A stretch of 64,000 nt of DNA, taken from NCBI GenBank assembly GCA_017463615.1, contig JAFTOU010000016.1, forward strand, positions 310,001 through 374,000, read 5' to 3'. Position numbers and translations under genes: made by a program. Shown piece by piece: positions 42,708 to 63,378 of this stretch. Position 1 is the stretch's first letter, and the number at the start of each line of letters is the position of its first letter. The notes under the pieces were generated by a model, which was not told the origin of the DNA, did not search any database, and was given only the letters and a program-made list of their open reading frames with translations. The stretch is from Alistipes sp. (GTDB taxonomy: Bacteria > Bacteroidota > Bacteroidia > Bacteroidales > Rikenellaceae).

Positions 42708-43004
42708 TTATTTAAAGTCAAAACCGAATATTTTCCCTCTCCTTCGCCACTCTTCATCATCTCGTTCAAACTGATCAAGCGTCTGTTCTGTACTAGATAT
42801 AAACGAGTCTGTCTTATCAAGCAGTGCCGCAGTCCGCAATCTCAACTCTATACGCTGGCGTACAAACACCAACTCATTGGCTGTCGCGCCAATTGTTCGA
42901 GCAACTTTCTCTACACAACTATTAGTTGCGTCTAACTTCACGTCACAACCATCGATTAACTTATCAAGTTGTTTTTGTCTATCTGTTAAATTATTCCAAG
43001 CCAT
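42708..43004 (-). CDS. Small helical protein, last gene of tubulin-like/VWA operon
   Basis: 98 aa, almost entirely helical and highly charged (DRQKQLDKLIDGCDVKL..., VRQRIELRLRTAALLDKTDSFISSTEQTLDQFERDDEEWRRR), heptad-like throughout, no signal peptide. Cysteines at about 20 and 30. It starts 38 bases downstream of the membrane-anchored transglutaminase gene. A coiled-coil adaptor for the larger proteins of the operon is possible, but no family is recognised. Confidence 0.6.
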   Translation of the reverse strand: MAWNNLTDRQKQLDKLIDGCDVKLDATNSCVEKVARTIGATANELVFVRQRIELRLRTAALLDKTDSFISSTEQTLDQFERDDEEWRRRGKIFGFDFK

Positions 43005-43042
43005 AGTTATTTTTATTTATTCGTTTTATTATGCTTACAAAT

Positions 43043-44521
43043 CTAATTTACTATATAACCTATCACTCCCCAATATGAGCCACCATCATCCAATTGAACA
43101 TAAAGGCACATCTTCCCCGACTGAGGTATTATTGTCATTGAATACATATTATCACTATCAACATGCCACTCATTATACCATTCATCATTATTTACAATTG
43201 CCCATTTTATACCAGACAAAGGGTAAAAACTGAATGTATATGGGCATCCCGACTTTAGAATTCTACTCATCGGAACCGACACAACCTTCAATCGTTTCTC
43301 GTCATTGATATAAATATCTGGAAGTTCTCTAATTTTCTCAGCGCGAATAACCTTCAATAGTTCCTTGGGGCAAATACCAGCAGCTTCCCAAGTATCTGGA
43401 CGCAAATTCTTCACACCTTTCACATCTGGCACACACATGGGATAATATTGTTCAACCTTTTCCCAATCTCTCTCATCTGGCTCATCGACAACATACTCCA
43501 TAAAAGAGTAAAATGAATTTTCTCCATTCTCCTTTACTCCAAGTACCACACTTGATTCATTCCTAGGCATAAACGAGATTGAATAAGTATCATCCCCACA
43601 AAGTTCCCATTCTTCTTTGTTAATATACAAGTCTTTATTCACCAGTACAAGTTCAACATCCCGGTTCATTAGCTTTATAGTTATTCGGTAGAACTCTCCG
43701 ATTGACAAAGATTTACTCTTTGGCAAATCTACAATCTTAATATCTCCAGCTGCAGAAGAATACAACTTTGGCAGACTTAATGGATTGCCTTTAATGGCAG
43801 AGTTATAGGCCTCATCAACACTCAAGCCATAATCTACATATGCTTCATCTATTGAGGGCACAGATTGAAACTGCTCAAGACTCATATCTCTATCGAGCAA
43901 TTGATACTGTTCTTCATCAGGATAATGAGACAAAATCATCCACTTCGGATCAACATTAAACCAATGTAAATGATTATCGCTCTTCTCAAAAGTCCCCGAG
44001 TCATCTACGCTACCAGCGCCCCATGTGGGATCCAATAGTATACCGTGATTTTTTCGTGTGTATGCAAAAATCCAAGCGTGCCCCTCTTCTCTAAGCATCC
44101 CATTCTTGTCCTTAGTTTTTCCAACAACTATTTCAGATCTAATTCCAATAGAGTTGGCCATGTGATAAAACAACTCTGTGTAAGCAGCACATACTCCTTT
44201 CCTGCAATCATAACATCTATCAGCTCGATAAATTTCATATGATGTATCATACTCAATATTATCACACAACCACAAATAGATTGCCCGAATCCTATCATAG
44301 TCAGTATCGCAACCCTCCGTGACACTTCTTGTCAACTTGGAGTAATCATATCGCGTATCATACGACCTCAACTCTTTATTAGGTTTCTTGAAGTAATCGT
44401 CATACTCTGCTGCATCATCCTTAAAGAATATAGAATACAAAAGGTAAAACACTACTGCGCAAAGAGCGATAACGGCAGATATTACTAAAACATCAAGTAC
44501 TCTAGCAATTAATCTCCACAT
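43043..44521 (-). CDS. Membrane-anchored transglutaminase-like protein with two C-terminal beta repeats
   Basis: 492 aa. One N-terminal membrane span (about 10-33) after a basic start, so the rest is predicted periplasmic. Transglutaminase-like catalytic triad: C111 in CRKGVCAAYTELF, H148 in EEGHAWIFAY, D164 in LLDPTWGAG. Beyond about 255 there are two similar beta domains, each with a core FYRITIKLMNRDVELVLVN / YTFSFYPLSGIKWAIVN and a terminal (E/I)GYIVN-like strand, suggesting a duplicated Ig-like module. The catalytic domain is a clear paralogue of the one at the end of the 959-aa protein upstream (19-base gap). Enzyme could be a protease, cross-linker or deamidase; activity is not known. 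Confidence 0.78.
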   Translation of the reverse strand: MWRLIARVLDVLVISAVIALCAVVFYLLYSIFFKDDAAEYDDYFKKPNKELRSYDTRYDYSKLTRSVTEGCDTDYDRIRAIYLWLCDNIEYDTSYEIYRADRCYDCRKGVCAAYTELFYHMANSIGIRSEIVVGKTKDKNGMLREEGHAWIFAYTRKNHGILLDPTWGAGSVDDSGTFEKSDNHLHWFNVDPKWMILSHYPDEEQYQLLDRDMSLEQFQSVPSIDEAYVDYGLSVDEAYNSAIKGNPLSLPKLYSSAAGDIKIVDLPKSKSLSIGEFYRITIKLMNRDVELVLVNKDLYINKEEWELCGDDTYSISFMPRNESSVVLGVKENGENSFYSFMEYVVDEPDERDWEKVEQYYPMCVPDVKGVKNLRPDTWEAAGICPKELLKVIRAEKIRELPDIYINDEKRLKVVSVPMSRILKSGCPYTFSFYPLSGIKWAIVNNDEWYNEWHVDSDNMYSMTIIPQSGKMCLYVQLDDGGSYWGVIGYIVN

Positions 44522-44540
44522 ATCAATCTACCCCATTGAG

Positions 44541-47420
44541 TTAAATATCCGAAAGTTCTTCAAACAAGGCATCTTTTCCATCATTATCTTCCGAAGGTTG
44601 TTTATACGGAAGCCTCCTAAACTGCTCTTCTGTAATCCGAATATCAAGCTTGGTCCAATATTGCAAATCAGGGAAATGACTGTAGATCATCCAAGATGGC
44701 GAAACATTAAACCAAACCGAGTTATCATCATGTTTTATAAACTTTCCATTATCAACACACCCAGCGCCCCATGTTGGATCAATCAAAAGCCCGGCGTATG
44801 CATTAGTATAAACAAATATCCATGAGTGCTTACTATCTGAGACTGTACCATCAGAAATCTTAACCTTGCCCGTGATGATATCGGCGGTCAAGCCAATAGC
44901 ATCTGCCAAATAACAGAACATTTCACAGTATGCCCAACAAACACCTCTTCTTGATCTCAAGCAGGTATCTGCATCTTGAATTTGCTTTGTGGTGTCATAC
45001 TCAATATTCTCGCATAGCCAATTGTAAATACATCGCGCCTTTTTCTCTACAGTATCTGCTGTGCTATCAATAATCTCTGACAGTAGGCCTGTTAAATCCG
45101 TACGCAACCTGCTTAATTTAGCCTCCCTCTTAGGTTTAAAGTCCTTAATTGCATCTATATGGTCTGGGATATTCAACACCTGTACCACACAAAGAGAGTT
45201 TACAAAATCACAAGGACATTGAGGGACTATAGACTCAGTTCCCACCTCGTAACGCGCTCTAAATTCCGTAGGCTCTATTATAACATTCTGGTTATTTGAG
45301 AAAAAGCCAATACTTACATTAGATGCAAGATTATTCTCCCGAATACGAATATATTCAACAAACGGTTTCGACTGCGTGATATTATACTCAATAATCCGAT
45401 GTAGATCCTGATCTGTCAACATCTCCTTTACAAATGGATTACTCCCATCCCACTTAAGAGTATGATACTTCCCCACAAGTGGATCTAAGACCTGATGTTT
45501 GATAAGTTCAAGCATAGTCATCCTATTATCAGGTTCAGCAGTGGCATCAAACCATCTACACAGAAATCTATCTATCATTTCCGCGTAATATCTATGGGAA
45601 TCTCGAAACTTACGAACAAGTTCCATGTCTATCAAGGAAATTGACTTAATATGCCATTTAGGTCGATAGCCTTCCTTCCCCAATACATACTGACCACTAA
45701 CATTTTTTTCACCATCCATGAGTAGTATGCACTCTCTCCTACGCGCCTCATAGTTCTCAATCATCTCTGTAAGATGGCTCCACCAATCGCGAACTTCATC
45801 TACCCGCTTCAGTTCCGCAATGCACTTATTCAACTTTGTTGCAATATCTTCACGAATTTGTTCTGATATCAGAGCTGGCGAATCCAATAGCAAAGCTCCA
45901 AACAAGGTATTTGGGCTCGCATCTTTCTTTCTTTTATTAAAGAATGAGAAAAAACATGTCAAACAACCTGTTCTTTCAGGCAAATCATCTAACGACTTCT
46001 GTTGAATCATCTCGGCCTCAACAGGCAGCTCCTCGGCTCGTCCCACATTTAGCATTGTGTTCACCGGGTAGTTCTGTGGCAATTCGTCGGCAACTGTCGC
46101 CCTATCCACAGCATACCTCATTGTTTTGATTCCCTCATCTGATTTAAGATATTCAACCAGCGAGTCAATTTGTTGATAGTGGGAGCTATAATTCTCTTCA
46201 TCCTCCTCGGTCACTCTTACACAATGCCCATAATTCTCACAGAACTCATCTGCATCAATAAATGTATTTTTGCAAATATTTTCCTCGTGATCTTCAATTT
46301 GCGCTTGGTAATCTGCAATACTATCCTTTAGCTGAGATATCTCAACCTGGGCTGCCAAAATCTGAGTTGGGTCAAGCGTCAATAAAGAACTTTCAAGCGC
46401 TGCTATTTCAGCCTCCTTTTGCTTAATCTGAATATTTAGGTTTGATATCTCTCGTTTTTCCTCACTAATATAGAGCTTAAGAAATGAATTCAGATATGTC
46501 GCAATCTGCTGTTCCTGACGAGAAACAGAATATTCATTATCAACAAGTAGTTTTGCAGGATTCCACTGAGCAGTACAATACAAATTCCATCTCTCCCATA
46601 TTGAGCGAAGACCATCTAACCATTGCAAGCCTAAATCTATCTTTTTGTAATAGTTATAGTCTATGAGCTTCTGTGTATCCAATGACGGAGCTGCATTTAG
46701 CGCTCTATTGAGCAATCGTTCCTCCGCAGAAAGTCTAAAAAAATCGTTAAGATCGCAGAAATCATACTGATGCTCAGACATGCCAATAGAGTAAATACCA
46801 GAACCTACAGTCGTTTTAGGATTATCATCTCCTGAGCATACCAATTTTGACCAATAACAGAGAAACTTCGCAAGCAAATTCGAATTCAAACTAGTTGCAG
46901 CTCCCATATAGTCCATATTATTGATATACAAAATATCTGTACGGAAACGATTGTCCACCTCAAGTCCTCGTAAAGATTCAAGAAGCTTCCAATGCGGGCG
47001 AATAGTAACATCCTCAGGCTTATTTATGTCATATCCGATAAGGACAATATCAATATGAAGCCCGAGCATCATTGCGCCGCCAATTTCGCGCAACTCCTCA
47101 CACACCATTCGCAAAGTTTCGCCATGCTCTTCTTCAAGGCACTGTGACACTATAAAAACATTGGGCACAACGCCACTAGGAATTAGATTCTTAAAATGAG
47201 AGATCTGATTAGTTAATGCTTTATGTAACGCTATCGGCTCATCGCTCTCATTTATTTTATCACCCGCATTATCGTAAATATCCCAACGATAGTGAAGGCC
47301 ATCTACCTCCTTAACAATACATCCAGATGTTATGACATTGTGTTGTAGGTGAGCATTTTTAATCTCACCTACAACATCTTGAATGTCATTATTGGCACCT
47401 ATGACAATAAAATAAGCCAT
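44541..47420 (-). CDS. Large coiled-coil protein with C-terminal transglutaminase-like domain
   Basis: 959 aa, no signal peptide or membrane span. The N-terminal ~300 residues form an alpha/beta domain (MAYFIVIGANNDIQD..., NVFIVSQCLEEEHGETLRMVCEELREIGG, IDIVLIGYDIN) of no recognised family; a coiled coil follows at about 325-395 (EEKREISNLNIQIKQKEAEIAALESS); a cysteine-rich patch CLTCFFSFF lies near 505. The transglutaminase-like domain occupies about 795-930 with C828 (RRGVCWAY), H865 (SKHSWIFVY) and D881 (LIDPTWGAG). It is six bases downstream of the tubulin-like gene, so a physical partnership is likely: a cytoplasmic enzyme perhaps acting on, or regulated by, the filament protein. Confidence 0.75.
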   Translation of the reverse strand: MAYFIVIGANNDIQDVVGEIKNAHLQHNVITSGCIVKEVDGLHYRWDIYDNAGDKINESDEPIALHKALTNQISHFKNLIPSGVVPNVFIVSQCLEEEHGETLRMVCEELREIGGAMMLGLHIDIVLIGYDINKPEDVTIRPHWKLLESLRGLEVDNRFRTDILYINNMDYMGAATSLNSNLLAKFLCYWSKLVCSGDDNPKTTVGSGIYSIGMSEHQYDFCDLNDFFRLSAEERLLNRALNAAPSLDTQKLIDYNYYKKIDLGLQWLDGLRSIWERWNLYCTAQWNPAKLLVDNEYSVSRQEQQIATYLNSFLKLYISEEKREISNLNIQIKQKEAEIAALESSLLTLDPTQILAAQVEISQLKDSIADYQAQIEDHEENICKNTFIDADEFCENYGHCVRVTEEDEENYSSHYQQIDSLVEYLKSDEGIKTMRYAVDRATVADELPQNYPVNTMLNVGRAEELPVEAEMIQQKSLDDLPERTGCLTCFFSFFNKRKKDASPNTLFGALLLDSPALISEQIREDIATKLNKCIAELKRVDEVRDWWSHLTEMIENYEARRRECILLMDGEKNVSGQYVLGKEGYRPKWHIKSISLIDMELVRKFRDSHRYYAEMIDRFLCRWFDATAEPDNRMTMLELIKHQVLDPLVGKYHTLKWDGSNPFVKEMLTDQDLHRIIEYNITQSKPFVEYIRIRENNLASNVSIGFFSNNQNVIIEPTEFRARYEVGTESIVPQCPCDFVNSLCVVQVLNIPDHIDAIKDFKPKREAKLSRLRTDLTGLLSEIIDSTADTVEKKARCIYNWLCENIEYDTTKQIQDADTCLRSRRGVCWAYCEMFCYLADAIGLTADIITGKVKISDGTVSDSKHSWIFVYTNAYAGLLIDPTWGAGCVDNGKFIKHDDNSVWFNVSPSWMIYSHFPDLQYWTKLDIRITEEQFRRLPYKQPSEDNDGKDALFEELSDI

Positions 47421-47426
47421 AAATAT

Positions 47427-50183
47427 TTAGAATTCAAGTTCTCTTAAATAAACAACTTCTCTTTCAAGAAGATCTCTTACCATTTGGTAAGCCGCATCCT
47501 TCTCTATAACACGCTCACGCTCTATTGTGCTTAGATTTGCGATTTCCAATAAGTATTTTCCATATTCCTCCTGCGCCTTTTTCATCACAGCTACAACAGC
47601 TGGCCTACCTTGGTCAAGAATCATCTTCTGAATACGGGCTTCAACTTCACTACCAAGTCCGCGAAGTTGGAACTGGTCAAATGCGATATCTCGTCTCTGC
47701 CCCAGTTCAAGAAGTCCTCCTGAAAGAATATCTCCCTGAGATGACTCTATACAGTACGACTTACGCGATTCGTCGTACTTAATAAAGCCATATACGATTG
47801 CATTTACCCAGTTAGGGAGTACAATATCCTTCTCTTGCTTAGGCATAAGATCAAAATTCTCAACAATCATTCTCTGGTTCCACCTTTCATCCAAATAACA
47901 AACAGGGCAAGCCTCTGAACTATACTTATCCTCTGCCTCTCTCATATAACCAAGCATATTATTTACAGCAAATGCAGGGCTAAAGCACTGGCTCTGGAAG
48001 AATGTAATTCTATCCGTTTGATGTATACTCTCAAAAATCGGTTTGGTTGCGCCAATCATAAACATATCGCTATAACCACTTTGAATTATACCCTTAGATT
48101 GATTATATACTCCAATGGTAAAGACGGTTGTCAACTCTTGTGCATGATCGAGTTTGCCGTGAGTATCTGTTGACCATAGAGGGCTAGACATCTCCTTCAC
48201 CTTATCAAAAATCCTCCTCAGGTCGGCGTCTGTCATTTTACTCAGTCTATGTTCAATGGTCACATTCTTCACATCTGCGACACTCTGCAGGCCCTTGGCA
48301 AAGTTAAATAGCACGGCATCAATAGTTTCTGCAGGCTGATTAATCAACCCCTCGATCGGATGCTCTTTTATAAAGAGAGCCGATGTTTCTGCCACATCTG
48401 GCAAAACAAAGTCGTTCACATCATCTGAATGTAAGAAAATCTGGAATTTAGAAGGCGTTTTAGCAGCCTGCTGAATAGTAGTAATTGCATTCACATTCTT
48501 CTTCTGTATAGCTTCTACATTTGCCTTAAGAACAGTTATTTGACTCAAGATGGAACAAACATACTGGTCAAAATCAGTAAAGAACTGAATTGCTTTTTGA
48601 TGTCTTAATAAATCTCGTTTCTGGGCAATATACTCCTCAACTTTATTCTGCAATGCAACAGCTGCATCTCTATTAAATATTGACAAGATACCAGTTCTTA
48701 GATCAGAGATATCAGCACTCCAGTCTACATTATATGCGAGTTTCTTCTGGAGATCGCCAACTTCTTTGACCATCTCATCTTTACAAAGCGTAATACTAGT
48801 CTGCAGAGCTTCTAGAAACGCCTGCGCCAACCCTACACCCTGTAGGCTATTAAGAATTATCCGAATTTTTTCATCAAGTTTACTTTTTACATTTGCAAGT
48901 TTAGTCTCTACATTATCATCTGCTTCCTCACTCACATTTGCTGCCTCAGCTCCAGCTGTAATATTTGCTTTAATTGTATTTACATCTGCAGTCCTATCTA
49001 TTATAACACTAAATGGGGCCCTATATGCAAGGATGCTATCTATAAGCAGATTAGCATCATGCTCTTGAATCGCCACTGCATCGCTCTCCATCCAAGTATT
49101 TACAGTCTTCAATGTAGCTATTGGGTCTGGCTTAGATAGTTGTTCTTTGCAGATTTGTGCCACAATACCATGAGCAACCACATTTCCAACCGCTTTATTG
49201 TCATACACGATCTCTGCGCTACCAGCCGAAGAATAAAACGCCTTCTTATTCTTAATACTATAATATCCTTTATCAATATTATCTTTAACACTATCTAGTT
49301 CGCCTGATGGAAGGAACATACAGCGGCCTATAGAATCCGTAATCTCATCTACAGTTTGCAATACAACACCCATCTTATTCCTGTTGTTTATAAGATACGC
49401 ATCTCTAACACCTTCGTCAAGATAGTACACATTTGCAAAACCGAAATCAAGTGCATTCTGATTATCATATGGCAGATGGTATAGATAGTCTAACTCCCTA
49501 ATTGCGCCATATGCATTTTGATACACATTTGCAGTAGCAGGTCCATTTACCATATTACGGAATACTTCTGGTAATACAATCCAAGGTGTAATAGAATATG
49601 GATGTCCCAGCTCTCTAAGGGTTTTTGCCACAAGAACAATAATATCCAACATAGTACCACTCCCCGTACCCCCGGCAACAGAACCAACGATATTGACCTT
49701 GGTAGGATATTCCACCCCATCCTTATTTGTATCATACGCGAATTTACATCCTACTGGCAGAGGCGCGCAAATTTCACTCACCTTGCTAGCCACACGCGCA
49801 CTAATATCTGTAGCATTATGCCTAGCAAGGAAGCGACCATTGCTTCTTATTTGACCAGCTCCAGTATTCATTAGATTGGACAGGAACTGAGAGTTTCTTC
49901 TTGGGAGCCACTGGAACTGCGAAAGATGATTGCGATATATTTCAAGCGCACTACCGACAATCCCGCAAAAACACAGCTCATTTTCCGACAGTTTTACCTC
50001 TTTTCCCATTCTTGATAGGACAGACTTATTTCGAATCCCCCTATCGGTATCAATCGCAAGAAATGCCACCATTGGAGGGACCTCTCCATACGCATCCACG
50101 AAACACTGTTTCGTACGAAGAATTGACTTAACACCAGTACCACCTAAACCCACATAAAGGGTTCTTGTAATTTTAATTGACAT
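47427..50183 (-). CDS. Tubulin/FtsZ-superfamily GTPase (Tubulin_2-like, FtsZl type)
   Basis: 918 aa. An N-terminal nucleotide-binding start TRTLYVGLGGTGVKSI (about 7-21), then the tubulin signature loop GSVAGGTGSGTMLDI (GGTGSG at 171-176), with PMVAFLAIDTD (about 37-47) as the strand after helix 1. This matches the large 'tubulin-like' proteins (PF13809; the FtsZl families of Makarova and Koonin) rather than FtsZ. Beyond the GTPase domain (~350 aa) there is a helical, partly coiled-coil middle (about 400-560) and a C-terminal domain without recognised relatives. It is presumed to assemble filaments. Upstream gap to the VWA gene is 25 bases, downstream 6. Confidence 0.82.
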   Translation of the reverse strand: MSIKITRTLYVGLGGTGVKSILRTKQCFVDAYGEVPPMVAFLAIDTDRGIRNKSVLSRMGKEVKLSENELCFCGIVGSALEIYRNHLSQFQWLPRRNSQFLSNLMNTGAGQIRSNGRFLARHNATDISARVASKVSEICAPLPVGCKFAYDTNKDGVEYPTKVNIVGSVAGGTGSGTMLDIIVLVAKTLRELGHPYSITPWIVLPEVFRNMVNGPATANVYQNAYGAIRELDYLYHLPYDNQNALDFGFANVYYLDEGVRDAYLINNRNKMGVVLQTVDEITDSIGRCMFLPSGELDSVKDNIDKGYYSIKNKKAFYSSAGSAEIVYDNKAVGNVVAHGIVAQICKEQLSKPDPIATLKTVNTWMESDAVAIQEHDANLLIDSILAYRAPFSVIIDRTADVNTIKANITAGAEAANVSEEADDNVETKLANVKSKLDEKIRIILNSLQGVGLAQAFLEALQTSITLCKDEMVKEVGDLQKKLAYNVDWSADISDLRTGILSIFNRDAAVALQNKVEEYIAQKRDLLRHQKAIQFFTDFDQYVCSILSQITVLKANVEAIQKKNVNAITTIQQAAKTPSKFQIFLHSDDVNDFVLPDVAETSALFIKEHPIEGLINQPAETIDAVLFNFAKGLQSVADVKNVTIEHRLSKMTDADLRRIFDKVKEMSSPLWSTDTHGKLDHAQELTTVFTIGVYNQSKGIIQSGYSDMFMIGATKPIFESIHQTDRITFFQSQCFSPAFAVNNMLGYMREAEDKYSSEACPVCYLDERWNQRMIVENFDLMPKQEKDIVLPNWVNAIVYGFIKYDESRKSYCIESSQGDILSGGLLELGQRRDIAFDQFQLRGLGSEVEARIQKMILDQGRPAVVAVMKKAQEEYGKYLLEIANLSTIERERVIEKDAAYQMVRDLLEREVVYLRELEF

Positions 50184-50208
50184 ATTAAAAAAATTTTAAG
50201 GTTATTTA

Positions 50209-52014
50209 TTAGTTTATGTTTATTATCGTATTGCTCTTAATCTCAGTAATAGTAGAGGCTCCAATTTGAGGCATTGGATTGGGATTAATCCAATAAGCGC
50301 CGCCCTGAGACACTGCAAGAATGCATCCTCCACGACTCGGTTTAAAAATCATCGGAGTTGCAAACGCTGAGTGGGTTACATATAATATCTTCCCCTTCAG
50401 AGCTCGATCAACCCAAGACTGCTTTTTCTGATGATTTGCTGCAATCACCACCATTCTCACACCTCTAAATCTAATGATAACAGGGGCTAATCCTCGAGCA
50501 CTCAGTGTTTTTTGAATGGCTCCAAACCTCGGAAAGAACACAGGTCTAAGAACTGTAAACCAAAGAAGTAGTGCCACAACTAGAAGGCCCAATATACAAG
50601 TAAGCCCTAACTTAATTGGGTTCCATCGTTCTTCAAATCTGAAGTTCCACCTAAATACATCAGGGGAACCATTTATCAAACAATTATCAAGTTTTGAAGG
50701 GATTAGCTCTATTCTACCGTAATATTTACCCTCCTGGCTCATATCATGCCCGATGATAGATAATTTAAGATTCGTGACATCTGGAGTTATCTTGAACGAA
50801 TCACCCTTTATCTCATCCCCATTAATAAATAGCTTGAAGTTCTGTGACGATAGGTTCAGCATCCCTTCCCCCGCTTTATTAACAAGGTAAACTTTCATAA
50901 TCGCCGACGAGCCGTCAACTTTAGCTTGTTCACTAAAATTCACTTTAATATTAGACTCTGCAGGAGTATACGCCTCTTCTGAGATTTTGCCAAAAGAACC
51001 ATAATACGACGCTTCGCCAAAGTTTTTATCCTTTATATCAAGACTCAAGCTACGTTCTGGGATGTTAACAACCTCGCAGAAAATTGCATCCGGTCCTACA
51101 AAAGTATAAGAGTCATGTCCTTCAAGTTTGGGCGACAACTTTATAGTATGTTTAATCGGCGGAGTTATACCCTCCTTACACCTAACCTCAAATGCTATTT
51201 TCTCATCTCTAATATCTCTATCAGAACATAAAACTTCATAATATTGATCATCGTATACCAATCGCAGAGTGCCCTTTGCATCCTTGCAATTATAACCCTT
51301 TAACTCAATAGTCTTAGCTCCCTTATCATCCCTTACATTATACTTAAGGTATGTGGGCAGAGTGGCTGTTTTTATACGCACTTTGGCATCTGGGACAATC
51401 CAAAAATGGGGCTGGTTTTCTATTGCATCTCTAATATACGGTTTATCCGCGTCCTGATGTACAAGTACATAAAAGCCATATGCATTTTTCCCTCGGGTCA
51501 AATTTATCCAAGAGTTTATAGTTGGAACCAACTCTGGTTTTGTCCCTTGATGATCATTTTCTCCATCTGTAAAAAGAAACATATACTTGATTTTATCACC
51601 TCTAAGATATGTATAAAACTTCTTTATTGGAGCAACAATATTTGTATTCTTATGGGGTATATACTTGTATTTTGTAACAAATTCCACCAAATATTCCTTC
51701 CCCGCAGATGATGCTTTTTGCGTTTCTACCGTTCTTATATCATCTTGGAAAGCGATAATGGTTATCTCATTACTGGGGTCATCTTCTACATATTCTATAC
51801 ATTCTATTATCGCTTTCTTGAGTTCCACCCACAACCCATTTCCATCCGAATATGTTTTCAGATCAGTACCATCAAGATCTTTCATCCCTGGTTGCTTAGG
51901 CAGGAGTGAGCCTGTAACATCCCACAATATCACAATATGCGCTCCGTCTTGAGCATTAGCATTAAAAAACACACTCAGACACAAGAATAACGCTGCTACT
52001 AATTTAAACTTCAT
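50209..52014 (-). CDS. Periplasmic von Willebrand factor A protein with membrane span and cytoplasmic tail
   Basis: 601 aa. Signal peptide to residue 21 (FLCLSVFFNANAQ). VWA domain about 23-215 with MIDAS residues D32-x-T-x-S36 (LWDVTGSLLP), a later Thr position, and FLFTDGENDHQG. A long beta-rich periplasmic region follows (about 215-465), then one membrane span (about 468-489, CILGLLVVALLLWFTVLR) and a basic cytoplasmic tail of ~110 residues (RFGAIQKTLSARG...). The tail could contact the cytoplasmic tubulin-like protein encoded next. The start overlaps the radical-SAM fragment gene by four bases (ATGA), so the two are coupled. Confidence 0.8.
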   Translation of the reverse strand: MKFKLVAALFLCLSVFFNANAQDGAHIVILWDVTGSLLPKQPGMKDLDGTDLKTYSDGNGLWVELKKAIIECIEYVEDDPSNEITIIAFQDDIRTVETQKASSAGKEYLVEFVTKYKYIPHKNTNIVAPIKKFYTYLRGDKIKYMFLFTDGENDHQGTKPELVPTINSWINLTRGKNAYGFYVLVHQDADKPYIRDAIENQPHFWIVPDAKVRIKTATLPTYLKYNVRDDKGAKTIELKGYNCKDAKGTLRLVYDDQYYEVLCSDRDIRDEKIAFEVRCKEGITPPIKHTIKLSPKLEGHDSYTFVGPDAIFCEVVNIPERSLSLDIKDKNFGEASYYGSFGKISEEAYTPAESNIKVNFSEQAKVDGSSAIMKVYLVNKAGEGMLNLSSQNFKLFINGDEIKGDSFKITPDVTNLKLSIIGHDMSQEGKYYGRIELIPSKLDNCLINGSPDVFRWNFRFEERWNPIKLGLTCILGLLVVALLLWFTVLRPVFFPRFGAIQKTLSARGLAPVIIRFRGVRMVVIAANHQKKQSWVDRALKGKILYVTHSAFATPMIFKPSRGGCILAVSQGGAYWINPNPMPQIGASTITEIKSNTIININ

Positions 52015-52367
52015 AATATGATTGATTTATTATTAAAAATCTCTCTCGACACAAATGAACTTATTGTACCGTTTGTACTGCCAAAAAATTTATAGGGCCT
52101 ATTCCACGACCCTCGCTCCACCCATTCAACAAGAGGGCGAATAACATCAATAGCCAGAAGAGTCTCTCCTCCCATAAATGCGATATCAAGTCTACCACCA
52201 GTTCTCATTAGAAATCGTTCAATGATAGACTTGACCATATCAAACGACATATCCTTGTCACGTTTTGTTCGAACATAACAATACCTGCAGTTAAGATTAC
52301 AGCGATATGTTGTAAGCAATCCTACTGCTTCACCGCTCATTTCATCCAGACAATCTTTCCTATCCAT
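52011..52367 (-). CDS. Short radical-SAM N-terminal half (118 aa)
   Basis: Begins with a classical cluster motif TTYRCNLNCRYCYVR (C23, C27, C30), followed by AFMGGETLL (the GGE motif, 66-68) and GSTNGT, all in the order found in the N-terminal half of peptide-modifying or sulfatase-maturating radical-SAM enzymes. It then stops after 118 residues, without the rest of the barrel or any SPASM cysteines, and the stop overlaps the VWA start. So it is either a decayed enzyme or a small domain reused with another protein. It starts two bases after the 69-aa peptide gene. Confidence 0.72.
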   Translation of the reverse strand: MDRKDCLDEMSGEAVGLLTTYRCNLNCRYCYVRTKRDKDMSFDMVKSIIERFLMRTGGRLDIAFMGGETLLAIDVIRPLVEWVERGSWNRPYKFFGSTNGTISSFVSREIFNNKSIIL

Positions 52368-52369
52368 AA

Positions 52370-52579
52370 CTAACCTGGATAAGAACCATAACTATAGTTA
52401 CAGTCCGTTGCACCTTGATAGCCATGTCGCGTTGGGTACATCTTACGGCCATAAGCAACGGTTGCAATTGATCTTGTTCGCTGGTCCCCTTTAGCTCGCT
52501 CAATCAAGACACTTATCTCTGTATTAGATATATCAAGCACTCTTTTCATAGCAATAAACTCAGCCCTTATTATTGTCAT
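52370..52579 (-). CDS. 69-aa peptide, possible modified-peptide precursor
   Basis: First gene of the AT-rich operon. The N-terminal half is charged and helical (IRAEFIAMKRVLDISNTEISVLIERAKGD), and the C-terminal part is rich in Gly, Tyr, Ser, Thr and Asn (HGYQGATDCNYSYGSYPG) with one Cys, a composition reminiscent of leader-plus-core precursors. The position two bases before a radical-SAM-type gene fits such a role. An internal ATG at about residue 11 could be the true start. No family is recognised and the downstream enzyme is truncated, so this remains a guess. Confidence 0.5.
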   Translation of the reverse strand: MTIIRAEFIAMKRVLDISNTEISVLIERAKGDQRTRSIATVAYGRKMYPTRHGYQGATDCNYSYGSYPG

Positions 52580-52594
52580 CTAATAGGCTCCGTA

Positions 52595-52615
52595 GCACAA
52601 GTTCTATAAAAGAAC
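52595..52615 (+). repeat. Left inverted repeat of putative invertible promoter
   Basis: 21 bases, perfectly complementary in inverted orientation to 52907-52927. Contains a smaller palindrome GTTCT-ATAAA-AGAAC, as recombinase sites often do. Lies in the predicted 5' leader of the operon. Confidence 0.85.
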
Positions 52616-52629
52616 TTTTAACCTATACG

Positions 52630-52663
52630 CAAAGATATAATAAAAAGTTTGAATTAAAGCAAA
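52630..52663 (-). promoter_or_regulatory. Promoter of tubulin-like/VWA operon, inside invertible segment
   Basis: Minus strand TTTG (52663-52660), 22 bases, TATCTTTG (52637-52630). It faces the operon in this copy, 51 bases from the peptide ATG. Confidence 0.68.
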
Positions 52664-52906: not shown

Positions 52907-52927
52907 GTTCTTTTATAGAACTTGTGC
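52907..52927 (-). repeat. Right inverted repeat of putative invertible promoter
   Basis: Perfect inverted copy of 52595-52615. Between the two repeats lie 291 bases, AT-rich, with no gene other than the promoter. No recombinase gene is in the window. Confidence 0.85.
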
Positions 52928-53012: not shown

Positions 53013-53462
53013 CTACTGAATATCCTCGGGTAGGGAGTCGGCGCGGACATAGACCGAGACATTCTCGCTATCGTCCTTAGCCGTCCAGCGCATGTGGGTG
53101 GCGGTAAGCTCTACGATATAACGGTGCGACCAGTCAAAGTAGTTATACTCGTCGGTGCCGTAGTTGCCACGAATTACTGCGCCGAGAGCAGAGTCTACCT
53201 CTATAAAGTAGTTGCCCGTAATGGTCTGGGTGTACATACTACCCACATTCTGATAGAGGGTATAACTGCGGTCAGAGCGCTCAAAATTGATATAGACAAA
53301 TGCCCCATCGGCAAGCGTTGCGCCATTGTCGTAGCTCTCAAGCATCCACAGCCCCGCGATATTTGTCGGGGTGACATCCAACAGAGGCTCTGAGGCCTCG
53401 TTACTCTGATTGTTGCAGCAGCAGAGTGTCAGCGCTGCAAAGAAAATTGCAATGTATCTCAT
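53013..53462 (-). CDS. Lipoprotein, lipocalin-like
   Basis: 149 aa. Lipoprotein signal (MRYIAIFFAALTLCC; acylated Cys within LCCC). The mature domain begins with the lipocalin-type ITGLW-like start NIAGLWMLESYDNG and has alternating beta strands (FVYINFERSDRSYTLYQN, IEVDSALGAVIRGNYG, YIVELTATHMRWTAKDD). Last gene of the envelope operon, two bases after the DUF1573 gene. Function unknown. Confidence 0.65.
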   Translation of the reverse strand: MRYIAIFFAALTLCCCNNQSNEASEPLLDVTPTNIAGLWMLESYDNGATLADGAFVYINFERSDRSYTLYQNVGSMYTQTITGNYFIEVDSALGAVIRGNYGTDEYNYFDWSHRYIVELTATHMRWTAKDDSENVSVYVRADSLPEDIQ

Positions 53463-53463
53463 A

Positions 53464-54186
53464 CTATTCTATTATTATCTCTCTTCTGCTCGGTGCGGTC
53501 TGAGCGTTGATATAAAGTTTCATATTCTCCCTCTTCTCCCCCCTCAGCCGAATAACCAAATCGCCCTGCTCGCCAGCCTTAAGCGTTGCAGGCTCGGTAT
53601 ATACCTCCAGCTCGGGCGAGGAGAGCATTCTATCCTTGGTTATCTGCAGCTCCGTAGTGCCACCATTCATGCAGGCTATGCGCTCCGTAGCGCCGCTCTG
53701 AATCTTCACTCCCCGCTGACGCAGCAGCAGCGCACCGCAGGTATATGGGTAATCGCCTCGGCGGTCGGCAGAGGCGACGACAAAGCCCTTGATGGCAACC
53801 ACAGCCGTAGGGATAGTCCCATTGTCGGCATATACAAAGAGCTTATGGCTAAAAGGTCCTGGGTAGCCCTTGCCCACAAAGGAGAGCCTTATAACTCCAC
53901 GCTCTCCAGCCTTAAGCACTCCACTTGTAGCCGTAAGGCAGCGGCAGGTGGTGCGGGTGCGGTAGGTTGCAGGGCTCTTGCCGCTATTATGCAGAGCAAT
54001 CTCCGCCGTGGCAATATCACTCTCTGCCACCCGACCCAGCTCTACGGTGCTCTGCCCTACCACAATATCTGTAGCCACAGTGCGGGGCGAGGCGAGGCTA
54101 TCTAAGGTCGCCTTGGGCACCAACCGAAGTTGTGCCGCACTACAGCCCCACGCAAGGCTCAGAATAAGCAGCAGAGCGTATCGCAT
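53464..54186 (-). CDS. DUF1573-domain lipoprotein
   Basis: 240 aa. Lipoprotein signal (MRYALLLILSLAWGC). DUF1573 motif at about 45-140: VELGRVAESDIATAEIALHNSGKSPATYRTRTTCRCLTATSG...GERGVIRLSFVGKGYPGPFSHKLFVYADNG, where the TTCRC cysteines are typical. A second beta domain follows to the C-terminus. One base of overlap with the subtilase stop. Ig-like surface protein of unknown partner. Confidence 0.8.
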   Translation of the reverse strand: MRYALLLILSLAWGCSAAQLRLVPKATLDSLASPRTVATDIVVGQSTVELGRVAESDIATAEIALHNSGKSPATYRTRTTCRCLTATSGVLKAGERGVIRLSFVGKGYPGPFSHKLFVYADNGTIPTAVVAIKGFVVASADRRGDYPYTCGALLLRQRGVKIQSGATERIACMNGGTTELQITKDRMLSSPELEVYTEPATLKAGEQGDLVIRLRGEKRENMKLYINAQTAPSRREIIIE

Positions 54187-56195
54187 TACAACCAGCCGTT
54201 ACTGTTTGCACCGCGACGCACGGTGATGGTAAAGTCAAACTTGCTACCGTTGCTTGCGGTGATAGTTGCCGCGGTAGAACCACTATCGTTACCCTTGAAA
54301 ATCAGCTTATCATCGGACTCACTAACCGACGCAACGGCAGTATTGGCGATAGTTACGCTATAGGTAAGAGCCTGACCATCAACAAAATATCGTGCAGGAG
54401 CGACCGCTACGCTACCATCTACGGCGACATAGATATTAGGGAAGACCATAGGCTGACCCGCATCGCCAGCAATAGCTGCGAGGAATGCCGAGGCATTGAC
54501 CTGACCGCCCATCTGACCGCGGTAGTCGCCCATATTTATCTGCATAGGCTGTATAGGACCCACATCGGCAACATAGCGGCAGTAGTTCTTCTTGCCCACA
54601 AAGTAGCTATCAATATTATCGGCACTCGCAACGAGCAGCTGCTGAATCTCCGATGCCTTGAAGTGGCGACGAAGCTGTGTAGCATAGCTTATACCCAGCG
54701 CAACCACGCCCGAAACATGCGGACAAGCCATAGAGGTACCCTCCATATATCCGTAGCCCGAAGGTGCGATATGGTACGGCAGTGTTGAGAGTATACATCC
54801 CACCTCGCCGTAGTTATGGGTATCATCAACATAGTCGTAGTAGTAGTCCTGGTCACCGCCTGGCGCAGAGATAGTAGTACCCGGTCCGAAGTTGGTATAT
54901 ACGGCAGGGGTAAAGTCGGCAGCCGTAGCCGCTACGGAGATATACTCCTCGGCAGCACCTGGATAGCCCGCAGCGGCAGCACTCTCGTTACCGCCCGCAA
55001 AGACTGCAATACCGCCCTCAACAGCGCCATTTGCAGAGCCAGCATAGTGGGTGAAGTACTCCAGAGCCTCGCGCTCCAGCGGAGAGCCTGCAATCCACTC
55101 CTCCTTACTTCCGAAGCCCGCAGCGCCCCAGTCGTAGACATTGGCACAAGGCGACACATAGCCCCAGCTACACTGAAGCACCACAGCGCCATTATCTGCC
55201 GCGTACTTTATAGCGCGAACAGTAGAGAGTATGCTTGTGGCCACATTTCCAGAGAATATCTGGCAGACCATAATCTTCACGCCGCTATCAGCACCACCAT
55301 CGCCACCTGCGATAGAGCTGATACCCACGCCATTATTGTTCACCGCCGAGATAACGCCAGCCACATGCGTACCGTGACCTGAGTCGTAGACATCGTCCCA
55401 GACAATCTTGCCCGACTGGTGCACGAAGTTATATCCATACACATCGCCCTTATAGCCATTGCCGTCGGCATCAACATCCGAGCGCAGACTCTCGCCCTCG
55501 TTCACCCAGATATTTGGCAGCAGGTCGGGGTGCTCCACAAAGATACCCTCGTCCAGCACTGCCACGATAACGCTACTATCGCCCGTGCTACGCTCCCAAG
55601 CCTTCTCAACCTGCACATCGGCATCCTTCACGGACTTTACTACGCCATCCTTTACAAACAGGTCGCCGTGGTTGATAATGTTCCACTGCGCTGGCAGCAG
55701 AGGGTCTGTCATCTGTGCGCGGGTAGAGGCTACAGCGCGCTCCACCTTACTCTCGCTCAGCGGAGTAGCCTTGCCAGTATAGGCGCGCTTGATAGTGCGG
55801 TTTACATCCACCTTCTGCACCTGACCCAGGCGGGCAAAGCGACGAGCGACATCCTCCACAGCCACCTTAGAGCTATCAAAGCGCACGACATACCAGAGGT
55901 TAAGTCCACTCTCAACAGTGCGCTCCTCGGCGCTACTATCTACGGCAAAGACGCGCTCAATAGAGCAGGTGCCGATAGTCTGAAGCAGAGTATCCAGCGT
56001 AATGTCGCCACTGCGAGTTACGCGGCTGCCATCCAGGCCTGCCTCGGCAATCATCTGTGCCACCTGCGGGGTGAACTTTACCAGTAGCTCGTCCTCGGCA
56101 TATGGGACAGGGGCAACATCTGCCACCTGCTCAAAGTCGGTGCTGCAAGAGAGTAGCAGCATCAGCGACAAGATATATATCAATTTACTCTTCAT
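54186..56195 (-). CDS. S8 subtilisin-like serine peptidase, lipoprotein
   Basis: About 669 aa from the ATG at 56195 (MKSKLIYILSLMLLLSC, a clean lipobox); a longer frame upstream runs antisense through the next gene and is rejected. Order: inhibitor-like propeptide (ELLVKFTPQVAQMIAEAG), catalytic Asp in VIVAVLDEGIFVEHPDL (DEG instead of the usual D[ST]G), His in GHGTHVAGVISA, oxyanion Asn region FAGGNESAAAAGYPGA, Ser in GTSMACPHVSGVVAL, and a C-terminal beta domain ending RGANSNGWL. Surface-anchored protease of a SusD-type operon: it probably degrades extracellular protein. Starts 11 bases inside the end of the LRR gene. Confidence 0.88.
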   Translation of the reverse strand: MKSKLIYILSLMLLLSCSTDFEQVADVAPVPYAEDELLVKFTPQVAQMIAEAGLDGSRVTRSGDITLDTLLQTIGTCSIERVFAVDSSAEERTVESGLNLWYVVRFDSSKVAVEDVARRFARLGQVQKVDVNRTIKRAYTGKATPLSESKVERAVASTRAQMTDPLLPAQWNIINHGDLFVKDGVVKSVKDADVQVEKAWERSTGDSSVIVAVLDEGIFVEHPDLLPNIWVNEGESLRSDVDADGNGYKGDVYGYNFVHQSGKIVWDDVYDSGHGTHVAGVISAVNNNGVGISSIAGGDGGADSGVKIMVCQIFSGNVATSILSTVRAIKYAADNGAVVLQCSWGYVSPCANVYDWGAAGFGSKEEWIAGSPLEREALEYFTHYAGSANGAVEGGIAVFAGGNESAAAAGYPGAAEEYISVAATAADFTPAVYTNFGPGTTISAPGGDQDYYYDYVDDTHNYGEVGCILSTLPYHIAPSGYGYMEGTSMACPHVSGVVALGISYATQLRRHFKASEIQQLLVASADNIDSYFVGKKNYCRYVADVGPIQPMQINMGDYRGQMGGQVNASAFLAAIAGDAGQPMVFPNIYVAVDGSVAVAPARYFVDGQALTYSVTIANTAVASVSESDDKLIFKGNDSGSTAATITASNGSKFDFTITVRRGANSNGWL

Positions 56196-57813
56196 CTCCC
56201 ATAGGTTTTTTCTTGGTTGTATACTCCTTATAGTAGTAGTCCATATTTGACGGTTCGTTGTCAAATACCGCCAGCGTACCATTCTTTGCGCGACCCTCCT
56301 GCGGGAAGACAAGGCTATATGGCTCCCACATATCCAACGCTGGGTGGTAGAGCAGCCAGTCTGGCAACTTACCATAGAGGCGGTTGTGGTTGATGCTCAG
56401 TCGCTTACAGTTAGGCATAACCTTCTTCACGCGACGGTCTACAAGCACCTGCGGCAGGGAGTCTACGGCGTTAATCTCCTCCTGAGTATAGTAAGGCACT
56501 GTATCGTCGTCCTCAAAGGTTGGAAGCTCGCCCTGCAGGTAGTTCACCGAGAGGACAAGGGTATCCAAATCCCACTTGAGCAGATGCTCTGGGAACTTAG
56601 GCTCGTCAATAAAGCCACCAAGGTCGGTGCGGTTATTGTTGCTCAAGTCCGAGACTACGCTGCGCTGGTTAGCATTGAGAATCAGCGTGCGCAGCTTAGG
56701 GAAGTTCTCCTTAGTAAGCACCGCAGGGATGGTCTGGAAGTTGTTTGAGCAGATATTGAGGTGCTCCAGATTCTTCAGCGCCGCGAAGCTCTGAGGCAGA
56801 GATACCAGTCCGTAGCTACCGAGCGTGAGTCGGCGCAGCTGGGTGAGGTTGGCAATATCGTCGCCCAAATCAAGGCTGAGCAAGAAGGTGTTGGTATTTC
56901 CGAAGAAGTAGAGCTCGTCGGCAGCGGTCAGGTAGCGCACCTCGTATGGCAGCGGCTCCTTGATGTTGAAGAAGTAGAACTCCGCGCTACGCACACGACC
57001 CACCTTCTCAGGGGTGCAGCCCTCCATACCCTCGTGCCACAGAGTAACATTATCCCACATATCCATCGGCTGTGAGGCATCCCACGAAGCCATAGTCTGG
57101 AGCGTGCGCGAGATAGAGAGCAGCGCCACAGAGTCGCCCTGACGGGTATCAGGGACGATAGGCTCTGCCGCCTGCTGAGTTACGCTGAGCAGATCCTGAC
57201 GGGCAAGTGTTACATCCGTCTTAGGGCGGAAGGCAACCTGTGCCAATCGCTCGCGGTCGGTAGTATTTATATCCCACTTAAAGCGGACAGTTGTCGTACG
57301 AGGACGAGCACCGCGGTTAAGGTCAAGGGTATGACGCTCGCTACTGAGCCAGCCCGCATTGTCGGGCACAGCGACCTCAAAATCTACATTTGAACGCACC
57401 GTAACATCAAAGTAGCGGCTCTCCAGACGGTCGTAATTAGAAATCTTAACCTCCGAGCCCTCAACCTCAATGGCGTAGTCAAAGCCCTTCTGGTTGATGA
57501 CAATCTCCTTCTCCTGCCAAGTATCAATATTCTGAATACGCACCACACCACGACGCGCCGAGGTTGTAAGTGCCGAGTCGATGATAAAGTTGCACTCGGT
57601 AGTACCGCGACCATTTGCTGGCGAGACGGTTATCCACGCATTGTCGGTAGATGCTATCCAGCGATTTGACGAGGTGATGGTGCGGCTTACGGTGCCACCC
57701 ACAGCCTCCACATCAAACTCAATGCCCTCGGTAGTAAAGGCTTGGTCTGTATTATCCGTATGACAGCTAACAGCTACGAAGGCTGCCATTAAAAATATAA
57801 TCACTCTATTCAT
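56185..57813 (-). CDS. Lipoprotein with BACON-like and leucine-rich-repeat domains
   Basis: 542 aa from the ATG at 57813 (MNRVIIFLMAAFVAVSC, lipobox AVSC). N-terminal half: two BACON-like beta domains (FDVEAVGGTVSRTITSSNRWIASTDNAWITVSPANG; FDVTVRSNVDFEVAVPDNAGWL). C-terminal half: leucine-rich repeats (LRRLTLGSYGLVSLPQSFAALKNLEHLNICSNNFQTIPAVL...). Predicted surface lipoprotein that binds protein or glycan ligand. One base separates it from the upstream LRR gene. Confidence 0.75.
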   Translation of the reverse strand: MNRVIIFLMAAFVAVSCHTDNTDQAFTTEGIEFDVEAVGGTVSRTITSSNRWIASTDNAWITVSPANGRGTTECNFIIDSALTTSARRGVVRIQNIDTWQEKEIVINQKGFDYAIEVEGSEVKISNYDRLESRYFDVTVRSNVDFEVAVPDNAGWLSSERHTLDLNRGARPRTTTVRFKWDINTTDRERLAQVAFRPKTDVTLARQDLLSVTQQAAEPIVPDTRQGDSVALLSISRTLQTMASWDASQPMDMWDNVTLWHEGMEGCTPEKVGRVRSAEFYFFNIKEPLPYEVRYLTAADELYFFGNTNTFLLSLDLGDDIANLTQLRRLTLGSYGLVSLPQSFAALKNLEHLNICSNNFQTIPAVLTKENFPKLRTLILNANQRSVVSDLSNNNRTDLGGFIDEPKFPEHLLKWDLDTLVLSVNYLQGELPTFEDDDTVPYYTQEEINAVDSLPQVLVDRRVKKVMPNCKRLSINHNRLYGKLPDWLLYHPALDMWEPYSLVFPQEGRAKNGTLAVFDNEPSNMDYYYKEYTTKKKPMGDEE

Positions 57814-57814
57814 A

Positions 57815-62448: not shown

Positions 62449-62475
62449 ATCTCTATTTTTTTATTATTAACAACA

Positions 62476-63375: not shown

Positions 63376-63378
63376 CTC

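What the first reader, a model, noticed from the sequence alone, without database searches (positions are those of the whole stretch)
42708..52579. Uncharacterised operon: tubulin-like GTPase, periplasmic VWA, two transglutaminase-like proteins, radical-SAM fragment
Seven minus-strand genes with gaps of -4 to 38 bases and visibly lower GC than both flanks. Makarova and Koonin described FtsZ-like families in a predicted membrane-remodelling system with a VWA protein, a GTPase and OmpA-like proteins. Here tubulin-like and VWA are kept, but the partners are two transglutaminase-like enzymes, a radical-SAM half and tiny proteins. Topology suggests a trans-envelope machine: VWA and one transglutaminase in the periplasm with spans, tubulin-like GTPase and the 959-aa enzyme in the cytoplasm. 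Defence, contact-dependent killing or envelope remodelling are all open.
Basis: partly seen in the sequence, partly recalled or inferred. Interest (0 to 1): 0.9.

Follow-up and report, generated by a model that had tools for sequence, protein, structure and literature searches.

The report
Bacterial tubulin-linked protease gene cassette
A bacterium carries what looks like an acquired set of genes in which a tubulin-like protein is kept together with a membrane sensor and with a protein that usually bears a protease-type enzyme; its role is not established, and distant relatives hint at defence.

Summary
The operon is real: seven minus-strand genes, GC 39% against 52% for the rest of the window. 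It looks acquired: 1 of 268 family genomes, this one, has the 959-aa protein. Three parts are conserved. In 47 loci found through the tubulin alone, a VWA/membrane-tail gene lies directly upstream in 43 of 45 with room, and a 'third protein' directly downstream in 43 of 43. The third protein is the new point: 34 relatives carry a papain peptidase with invariant active-site residues, two (and the window) a transglutaminase, seven neither; one of those seven is followed by a DA1-like metallopeptidase. The radical-SAM piece and 69-aa ORF are probably remnants, behind a promoter between perfect 21-bp inverted repeats: a possible flip switch, inversion not observed. On three Thermaceae plasmids a vWA-tubulin-third trio lies beside brxL; two of the three have further defence genes around it. 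Best reading: a periplasmic VWA sensor coupled through a tubulin-like GTPase to a thiol-protease effector, probably a conflict system. The architecture is well supported; the function is inferred.

The parts
47427..50183 (-). Core gene 2: tubulin-like GTPase (918 aa, FtsZl1/Tubulin_2)
   Evidence: PF13809 E 1.3e-46; S..GGTG.G column set at least 90% conserved in 49 aligned tubulins, with conserved columns along most of the length
50209..52014 (-). Core gene 1: periplasmic VWA + middle region + one transmembrane span (471-489) + ~110-aa cytoplasmic tail (601 aa); two separate genes in many relatives
   Evidence: Signal-peptide-like start and span by hydropathy; MIDAS residues; Pfam and solved VWA matches of relatives; split versions, e.g. 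L042, L044, L045
44541..47420 (-). Core gene 3, 'third protein' (959 aa): N-terminal core, coiled-coil-like middle, C-terminal core (~540-760), then transglutaminase module (~770-940)
   Evidence: Transglut_core 784-874 E 3.7e-13; two collinear profile matches to 34 papain-type third proteins, E 3.7e-6 and 2.9e-5, reversed decoy of the N region 0.14; end pieces alone E 7.9e-7 and 1.9e-7, decoy 0.35
43043..44521 (-). Accessory: membrane-anchored, probably periplasmic transglutaminase (492 aa) with two similar C-terminal stretches (seen by eye)
   Evidence: Transglut_core E 2.3e-17; span 11-29; 44% identical over 178 aa to the TG of the 959-aa protein; relatives in genomes without a tubulin match
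42708..43004 (-). 98-aa protein without known relatives, function unknown
   Evidence: Only sub-threshold family matches; no match in the 47 loci or plasmids
52011..52367 (-). Truncated radical-SAM peptide maturase (first 118 aa only), probable remnant; its stop overlaps the VWA start by 4 bases
   Evidence: PF04055 E 2.4e-9; best NCBIfam PapB, profile 4-112 of 330; the other frames across the junction show stops or the VWA protein; relatives of 384-385 aa in L108 and L110
52370..52579 (-). 69-aa ORF, possible remnant of a RiPP precursor
   Evidence: Position before the maturase fragment; no family match; assignment by inference
52595..52615 (.). Left arm of perfect 21-bp inverted repeat
   Evidence: Longest inverted repeat with spacer 60-700 in the window, next best 15 bp; no further copy in the own genome at up to 3 mismatches
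52907..52927 (.). Right arm of perfect 21-bp inverted repeat
52629..52663 (-). Bacteroidales-type promoter-like site TTTG-N22-TATCTTTGC inside the inverted repeat, reading into the operon
   Evidence: a similar pattern occurs 6 times in the whole window, both strands; consensus -33 TTTG / -7 TANNTTTGY from PMC8748976 passages

Best explanation
A horizontally acquired, trans-envelope switch for a thiol-protease-type enzyme, most likely a conflict (anti-invader) system. Shown by sequence: the VWA protein has a signal-peptide-like start, an intact MIDAS site, one membrane span and a cytoplasmic tail; the tubulin keeps the GTP-binding loop and has no export signal; the third protein carries an enzyme with the catalytic motifs in place and no export signal; the three genes are kept together across Bacteroidota. 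Inferred: the VWA binds a ligand or peptide in the periplasm through MIDAS; its tail changes the tubulin's GTP-dependent assembly; the assembly recruits or unlocks the third protein, whose transglutaminase-like module (papain in most relatives) cleaves or cross-links target proteins and so arrests the cell or the invader. The second, periplasmic transglutaminase would be an accessory effector, as secreted nucleases or a GH25 muramidase may be in relatives. In this genome the cassette probably landed behind a phase-variable promoter of an older peptide-modification locus, now in the orientation that reads into the operon, so that only part of a population would express it.
For: Linkage: tail gene directly upstream in 43 of 45 loci with room, third protein directly downstream in 43 of 43. 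Enzyme slot: of nine third proteins scanned with Pfam, five have papain (E 1.2e-21 to 1e-17), one transglutaminase, three neither; papain Gln/Cys/His/Asn aligned and invariant in 34 of 34 (the looser text motif for the Cys site finds 32 of 34); TG motifs in the window, L042 and L046. DA1-like metallopeptidase 4 bases behind the enzyme-less L045 third protein; TPR/aspartyl-protease gene 16 bases before the L043 cassette. Tree: TG one clade 100/100, sister to three enzyme-less relatives. Accessory genes downstream: Endonuclease_NS in L048, L056, L060, L074; Exo_endo_phos-type lipoprotein in L047, L071, L079; GH25 in L046. Mobility. Defence link: on three Thermaceae plasmids a vWA-tubulin-third trio is next to brxL; Meiothermus also has HmaC (1155 bits), DUF1156 and PDC-S01, Allomeiothermus a DrmD/BrxH-like helicase, DNA methyltransferase and WYL protein, Thermus oshimai only RecQ-type helicase and exonuclease. 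Switch.
Against: No activity shown. No PADLOC system model covers the trio; window proteins match only viperin models (radical-SAM piece, E 2.2e-8), SMC-like coiled-coil models (E 0.0036 and 0.012) and a chance-level PDC-S26 (0.63). In Bacteroidota 90 of 376 neighbour proteins were scanned with PADLOC: 106 families matched, 25 shown, the top ones (Mko, CARF-type, PDC-S02) in 2-3 members each, no control set, so no clear defence-island signal. The Thermaceae third protein is not detectably homologous to the Bacteroidota one (best E 0.034). Counterparts of T6-H7 could not be identified in FtsZl1 proteins (PMC2875224 passage), so polymer formation is not a given. Flanks here look like housekeeping genes. 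Seven relatives lack the enzyme and a replacement peptidase was seen beside only two of them. Some loci have metabolic genes directly downstream. No serine or tyrosine recombinase hit of the genome (18 in all) lies on this contig.
Confidence: 0.45

Rival explanations
1. Membrane- or envelope-remodelling machine (the Makarova-Koonin proposal): the tubulin polymer shapes the inner membrane, the VWA and the enzyme mature or cross-link envelope proteins under special conditions.
For: Membrane topology of the VWA protein; at least one hydrophobic span behind the papain in 29 of 34 papain-type third proteins; GH25 and PG-binding genes near L046 and L048; proposal printed for FtsZl1.
Against: Sparse, acquired-looking distribution (1 of 268 family genomes; 3 of 393 order genomes, the own included, at E below 1e-50); different catalytic modules in the same slot; secreted nucleases downstream in several loci; Thermaceae cassettes beside brxL.
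Confidence: 0.27
2. A stress-signalling or protein quality-control relay: periplasmic ligand or misfolded protein bound by VWA triggers a cytoplasmic regulated protease that cuts a regulator, with no role in conflict.
For: Same anatomy; DnaJ gene near the L043 cassette; thiol-protease motifs in place.
Against: Such relays are usually inherited vertically (general knowledge); this one is sporadic and unlike its host in GC; nucleases and a muramidase accompany it in several loci.
Confidence: 0.16
3. Contact-dependent or secreted antagonism: the operon builds or loads a weapon against neighbouring cells.
For: Secreted nucleases, a muramidase and a periplasmic TG in several loci.
Against: No secretion-apparatus family above cut-off among the seven proteins; tubulin and third protein without export signal. 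Neighbours were not searched for toxin or immunity families.
Confidence: 0.06
4. A decaying island without present function.
For: The radical-SAM gene is truncated and the 98-aa gene has no relative found.
Against: All three core ORFs are full length against relatives, with catalytic and MIDAS motifs in place and tight spacing.
Confidence: 0.06

Closest known systems
FtsZl1 / Tubulin_2 (PF13809) - vWA operons (Makarova and Koonin 2010, PMC2875224; passages and section 6 read)
   Same: Same tubulin family, same pairing with a vWA protein that may have signal peptide and span and mostly an intact MIDAS; function unknown; membrane remodelling proposed.
   Different: No P-loop GTPase, kinase or OmpA-like family among the seven window proteins; the conserved partner here is a third protein with papain or transglutaminase module, not mentioned in the passages read (supplementary tables not seen).
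GAP1-N2 GTPase-centric conflict systems with tubulin and vWA (Kaur et al. 2020, PMC7159879; passages and section 29 read)
   Same: Tubulin plus membrane-bound vWA with the vWA outside; assembly and peptide binding proposed; transglutaminase-like, trypsin and caspase effectors occur in the sister vWA-MoxR systems.
   Different: No TRAFAC GTPase with zinc ribbons and no GAP1 family match; the tubulin theme is described there for firmicutes and actinobacteria; no papain or transglutaminase tied to tubulin in the passages read.
BREX and BREX-related DUF499/Hma systems (NAR 2026, PMC12839542; passages read)
   Same: On three Thermaceae plasmids a vWA-tubulin-third trio sits beside brxL, in one case with HmaC-type genes.
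   Different: No such gene among the seven window proteins; the word tubulin does not occur in the main text of that paper; the Thermaceae third protein is not detectably homologous.
Invertible promoters of Bacteroidales controlling captured genes (PMC8748976; passages read)
   Same: Inverted repeats around a TTTG / TANNTTTGY promoter; captured genes behind a degenerate first gene of an older locus.
   Different: There the invertase gene is adjacent; none is near here. Inversion not observed.

Membership tests
FtsZl1 / Tubulin_2 family | PF13809 match with the GGTG GTP-binding loop | tested here: met
   E 1.3e-46 over profile 1-354; GGTG.G at least 90% conserved in 49 sequences, while the stricter text motif with A/G before GGTG fits 18 of 49
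FtsZl1 / Tubulin_2 family | vWA gene in the operon, MIDAS intact | tested here: met
FtsZl1 / Tubulin_2 family | P-loop GTPase and/or OmpA-like partner (frequent, not universal) | tested here: not met
   no such Pfam hit among the seven proteins at E up to 1
GAP1-N2 conflict systems | GAP1 protein and TRAFAC GTPase | tested here: not met
   no such family among hits of the seven window proteins or nine third proteins
GAP1-N2 conflict systems | tubulin plus membrane vWA | tested here: met
MoxR-vWA ternary systems | MoxR AAA+ ATPase | tested here: not met
   no AAA+ hit in the seven proteins
BREX / Hma systems | BrxL, PglZ/BrxC or DUF499, methyltransferase, helicase | tested here: not met
   no PADLOC hit of that kind for the seven window proteins; found beside Thermaceae trios
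Papain C1 / transglutaminase-like thiol enzymes | family match and catalytic Cys-His-Asn/Asp | tested here: met
   PF01841 in the window; motifs GVC, H.W, DPTW; papain Gln/Cys/His/Asn in 34 of 34 relatives. Activity not tested
Invertible promoter (inverton) | inverted repeats around a promoter | tested here: met
   the spacing of the two promoter elements is 22, slightly longer than the usual 19-21 (recalled)
Invertible promoter (inverton) | invertase gene nearby | tested here: not met
   6 PF00239 and 12 PF00589 hits in the genome, none on this contig
Invertible promoter (inverton) | both orientations seen in reads | not testable with these tools
   no reads held
RiPP cassette | full-length radical-SAM maturase with precursor | tested here: not met
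   maturase stops after 118 aa of about 330-385; precursor only suggested by position

The most novel reading that the evidence does not exclude
A bacterial inflammasome-like device: a tubulin-family GTPase polymer, nucleated through a periplasmic VWA sensor that spans the membrane, serves as the activation platform for a papain/transglutaminase-type protease in anti-invader immunity, with the protease module exchanged between lineages and the whole cassette switched on in a fraction of cells by promoter inversion.
Probability: 0.28. Interest if true: 0.92.

Novelty: new variant of a known kind. Interest (0 to 1): 0.7.

Why it matters
What FtsZl1-type tubulins do was left open in the 2010 description, and no answer turned up in the searches made here. 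In this group the tubulin is tied, locus after locus, to one protein family that usually carries a thiol-protease-type enzyme with its active-site residues in place. That gives the system a measurable output: disable the enzyme and see what is lost. If the link to protease activation and to defence holds, it would be a cytoskeletal GTPase acting as a switch for a protease in bacterial immunity.

Tried and rejected
Viral origin: two viral-contig scans for the tubulin found no relative and the repeat is absent there; one unverified 9.8-kb 'Bacteriophage sp.' record has a 26.5% match over query 5-401, has no annotation and was not pursued. Plasmid hits to the 959-aa protein cover only its transglutaminase, in other contexts. 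Conservation of the VWA tail in other Tubulin_2 systems, suggested by one weak match, failed a profile test. Homology of the Thermaceae third proteins failed. Solved structures by sequence: none for the tubulin alignment or the 492-aa protein; only apolipoprotein A-I, along the coiled-coil-like middle, for the third protein. Repeats upstream of relatives: 40 of 47 loci examined, inverted repeats of 12 bases or more in five, the longest 19 bp in L078, none like the window's; the operon start was set mechanically there. Direct or inverted repeats of 10 bases or more at the island ends: none. Rfam matches at gathering score or tRNA genes in the window: none. No exact empty site: the subtilase cluster beside the island is partly conserved in relatives, the other flank is not.

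Limits of the counts: the 47 loci were chosen by short tubulin patterns, so they are relatives of this tubulin only. L043 and L083 lie on the contigs used to build the query alignment and were found by construction. Some loci are near-copies (L058/L066, L049/L080, L063/L082) or share a genome (L042/L061, L081/L085). One of the 43 downstream third proteins (L054) is cut by the contig end. The PAP and TG labels come from full-length profiles and overcount; enzyme types are taken. Of 15 plasmid records with a relative of the Meiothermus tubulin I opened three.
Full report
What is there. Seven minus-strand ORFs lie at the stated coordinates, with gaps of 38, 19, 6, 25, -4 and 2 bases, GC 0.393 against 0.520 for the rest of the window, and third-position GC 0.32-0.37 against 0.58-0.64 in four flanking genes. 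Pfam gives Tubulin_2 for the 918-aa protein, Transglut_core for the 492- and 959-aa proteins, Radical_SAM for the 118-aa protein, and a sub-threshold VWA for the 601-aa protein. Relatives secure the VWA: 7 of 18 homologues match VWA_2, the profile hits solved VWA domains and the MIDAS residues are invariant or nearly so.

Which parts belong together. A scan of genome contigs with an alignment of three tubulins gave 47 loci with best-segment identity of 24-66%; 45 are titled with a Bacteroidota name, one only 'bacterium', one Chloroflexi. Neighbours played no part in the choice. A gene for the VWA protein's membrane tail lies directly upstream of the tubulin in 43 of 45 loci with more than 200 bases of upstream sequence (exceptions L085 and L088; median gap 15 bases). 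A third protein lies directly downstream in 43 of 43 with room (median gap 10; one cut by the contig end). VWA and tail are one gene in some loci and two in others. The window's 492-aa transglutaminase, 98-aa protein, radical-SAM piece and 69-aa ORF are not in this conserved set.

The third protein. In the window, L042 and L046 it ends in a transglutaminase. In 34 loci it carries a papain-family peptidase in its middle: five of nine third proteins scanned by Pfam are of this type, one has the transglutaminase, three neither, and active-site Gln, Cys, His and Asn align and are invariant in 34 of 34. L043, L044, L045, L053, L064, L083 and L085 have neither motif set. The parts around the enzyme are homologous: hhalign of the window group (6 sequences) against the papain group (34) gives two collinear matches, 83-220 to 111-260 (E 3.7e-6) and 544-740 to 958-1156 (E 2.9e-5), which flank the papain; a reversed decoy of the N region gives 0.14. 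The end pieces alone give 7.9e-7 and 1.9e-7 with decoy 0.35. The window group and the second enzyme-less group (L053, L064, L083, L085) match each other only at E 0.0017, while that group matches the papain group at 2e-12. Transglutaminase and papain share a fold and a Cys-His-acid/amide triad (general knowledge), so the protein usually bears a thiol enzyme although module and position differ. L045, without one, has a DA1-like LIM metallopeptidase four bases downstream, and L043 has a TPR/aspartyl-protease gene 16 bases upstream. Of the other five, products beside L044, L064 and L083 were scanned and showed no peptidase. In a tree of 46 tubulins the transglutaminase group is one clade (100/100), sister to L043-L045 (100/100); the tool warns of long branches meeting at the deep join.

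Topology and accessories. Hydropathy gives the 601-aa protein a signal-peptide-like start and a span at 471-489, the 492-aa protein a span at 11-29, tubulin and 959-aa protein none, and 29 of 34 papain-type third proteins at least one span behind the papain. So the VWA should face the periplasm and the third protein the cytoplasm. Downstream of the trio some relatives have secreted or membrane enzymes: Endonuclease_NS in L048, L056, L060 and L074, Exo_endo_phos-type lipoproteins in L047, L071 and L079, GH25 in L046. Others have metabolic genes, such as a racemase in L057, a beta-galactosidase in L049 and an FAD enzyme in L063. The window's 492-aa transglutaminase is a paralogue of the fused one (44% over 178 aa). 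Its near full-length relatives in two order genomes (38% and 30%) have other neighbours, and those genomes had no tubulin match.

Acquisition and switch. The 959-aa family was found in 1 of 268 genomes of the host family, the window's own; of 393 order genomes 13 had any tubulin match, 3 of them at E below 1e-50 including the own. Upstream lies a perfect 21-bp inverted repeat with a 291-base spacer, the longest of its kind in the window (next 15), with no further copy in the genome at up to 3 mismatches. Its spacer holds TTTG-N22-TATCTTTGC reading into the operon, close to the -33/-7 consensus quoted in PMC8748976. A looser form of the site, CAAGTTCTTGATAAGAACTTG, sits at three contig ends of the same genome within 141 identical bases before fimbrillin-like genes; this fits recombining DNA that broke the assembly, but also a plain repeat. 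In 150 other genus genomes the loose pattern is near chance: 27 hits in 23 genomes, against 17 hits for the backward control by my count of the table. No recombinase hit lies on this contig. Directly inside are a 69-aa ORF and the first third of a radical-SAM maturase, whose stop overlaps the VWA start; relatives of the maturase in L108 and L110 have 384-385 aa. I read this as a cassette that landed behind the promoter of a peptide-modification locus. PMC8748976 describes resistance genes captured in a similar way behind a degenerate first gene. Inversion itself was not observed.

Function. Three Thermaceae plasmids carry the order vWA - tubulin - third protein of 677-686 aa, with brxL next, in Allomeiothermus after an insertion sequence. 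The Thermus tubulin aligns with the window's over residues 4-810 (E 1e-33) and the Meiothermus one over 4-354 (E 1e-38). The three are 53-77% identical over their length to the Meiothermus query. The VWA profile finds the Meiothermus and Thermus vWA proteins at E 1.8e-11 and 6.9e-10. Around the trio Meiothermus has HmaC/DUF499, DUF1156 and PDC-S01 proteins, Allomeiothermus a DrmD/BrxH-like helicase, a DNA methyltransferase and a WYL regulator; Thermus oshimai has a RecQ-type helicase and an exonuclease (PADLOC was run on eight proteins, the rest is annotation). This ties the cassette type to defence clusters by position. Their third protein shows no detectable homology to the Bacteroidota one, and in Bacteroidota the neighbour scan gave no clear defence signal.

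Print. Searches for tubulin with vWA, papain, transglutaminase, anti-phage, BrxL or PF13809 gave the FtsZl1 paper (PMC2875224), the Kaur et al. paper (PMC7159879) and an FtsZ/tubulin evolution paper (PMC9871819) as nearest. Passages of each were read, plus section 6 of the first and section 29 of the second. None of these passages describes a tubulin-linked papain or transglutaminase protein in Bacteroidota; supplementary tables were not seen, and most subscription journals are not in the library.

Noticed in passing
L147:1-141, L148:3301-3441, L149:3489-3629 (own genome, contigs C10, C58, C67): Three contig ends share 141 identical bases with a 21-base palindrome CAAGTTCTTGATAAGAACTTG in front of fimbrillin-like lipoprotein genes, a possible family of recombination sites related to the operon's inverted repeat.
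   Followed up: partly
L078, about 1487-1909: A 19-bp inverted repeat (CTATACATTCCTACATTTT) lies upstream of the gene run that leads into a papain-type cassette, a possible second inverton.
   Followed up: no
L042 and L061 (both Prevotella sp. RGIG7570): One genome holds two cassettes, one of the transglutaminase type and one of the papain type.
   Followed up: no
L048:7245-12225 and L060:16274-21000: Downstream of a papain-type cassette: secreted Endonuclease_NS, a PG-binding protein (in L048), a 114-aa gene and two radical-SAM proteins in one tight run; a second association of radical-SAM with this system, in two closely related loci.
   Followed up: partly
L034, L036, L038, L039 and L035, L037: Other Tubulin_2 operon types in Bacteroidales: ~755-1058-aa tubulins with a ~200-240-aa neighbour gene, and 797-aa tubulins with a signal-peptide VWA-like gene and a large membrane protein.
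   Followed up: partly
L053:4399-15018: Two tubulin genes (926 and 946 aa) in one locus, with a VWA gene between third protein and second tubulin.
   Followed up: no
L132:7248-15931: In Allomeiothermus silvanus the vWA-tubulin-third trio is bracketed by two copies of the same IS701-family insertion sequence, a possible composite element.
   Followed up: no
window 53013-63939: Gene cluster with a subtilase and a DUF1573 protein beside the island, partly conserved in relatives L102-L106.
   Followed up: partly
third protein of the window, residues about 485-499: The transglutaminase-type and L044/L045 third proteins share a short GC-aromatic-basic stretch which might touch the membrane where papain types have spans.
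   Followed up: no
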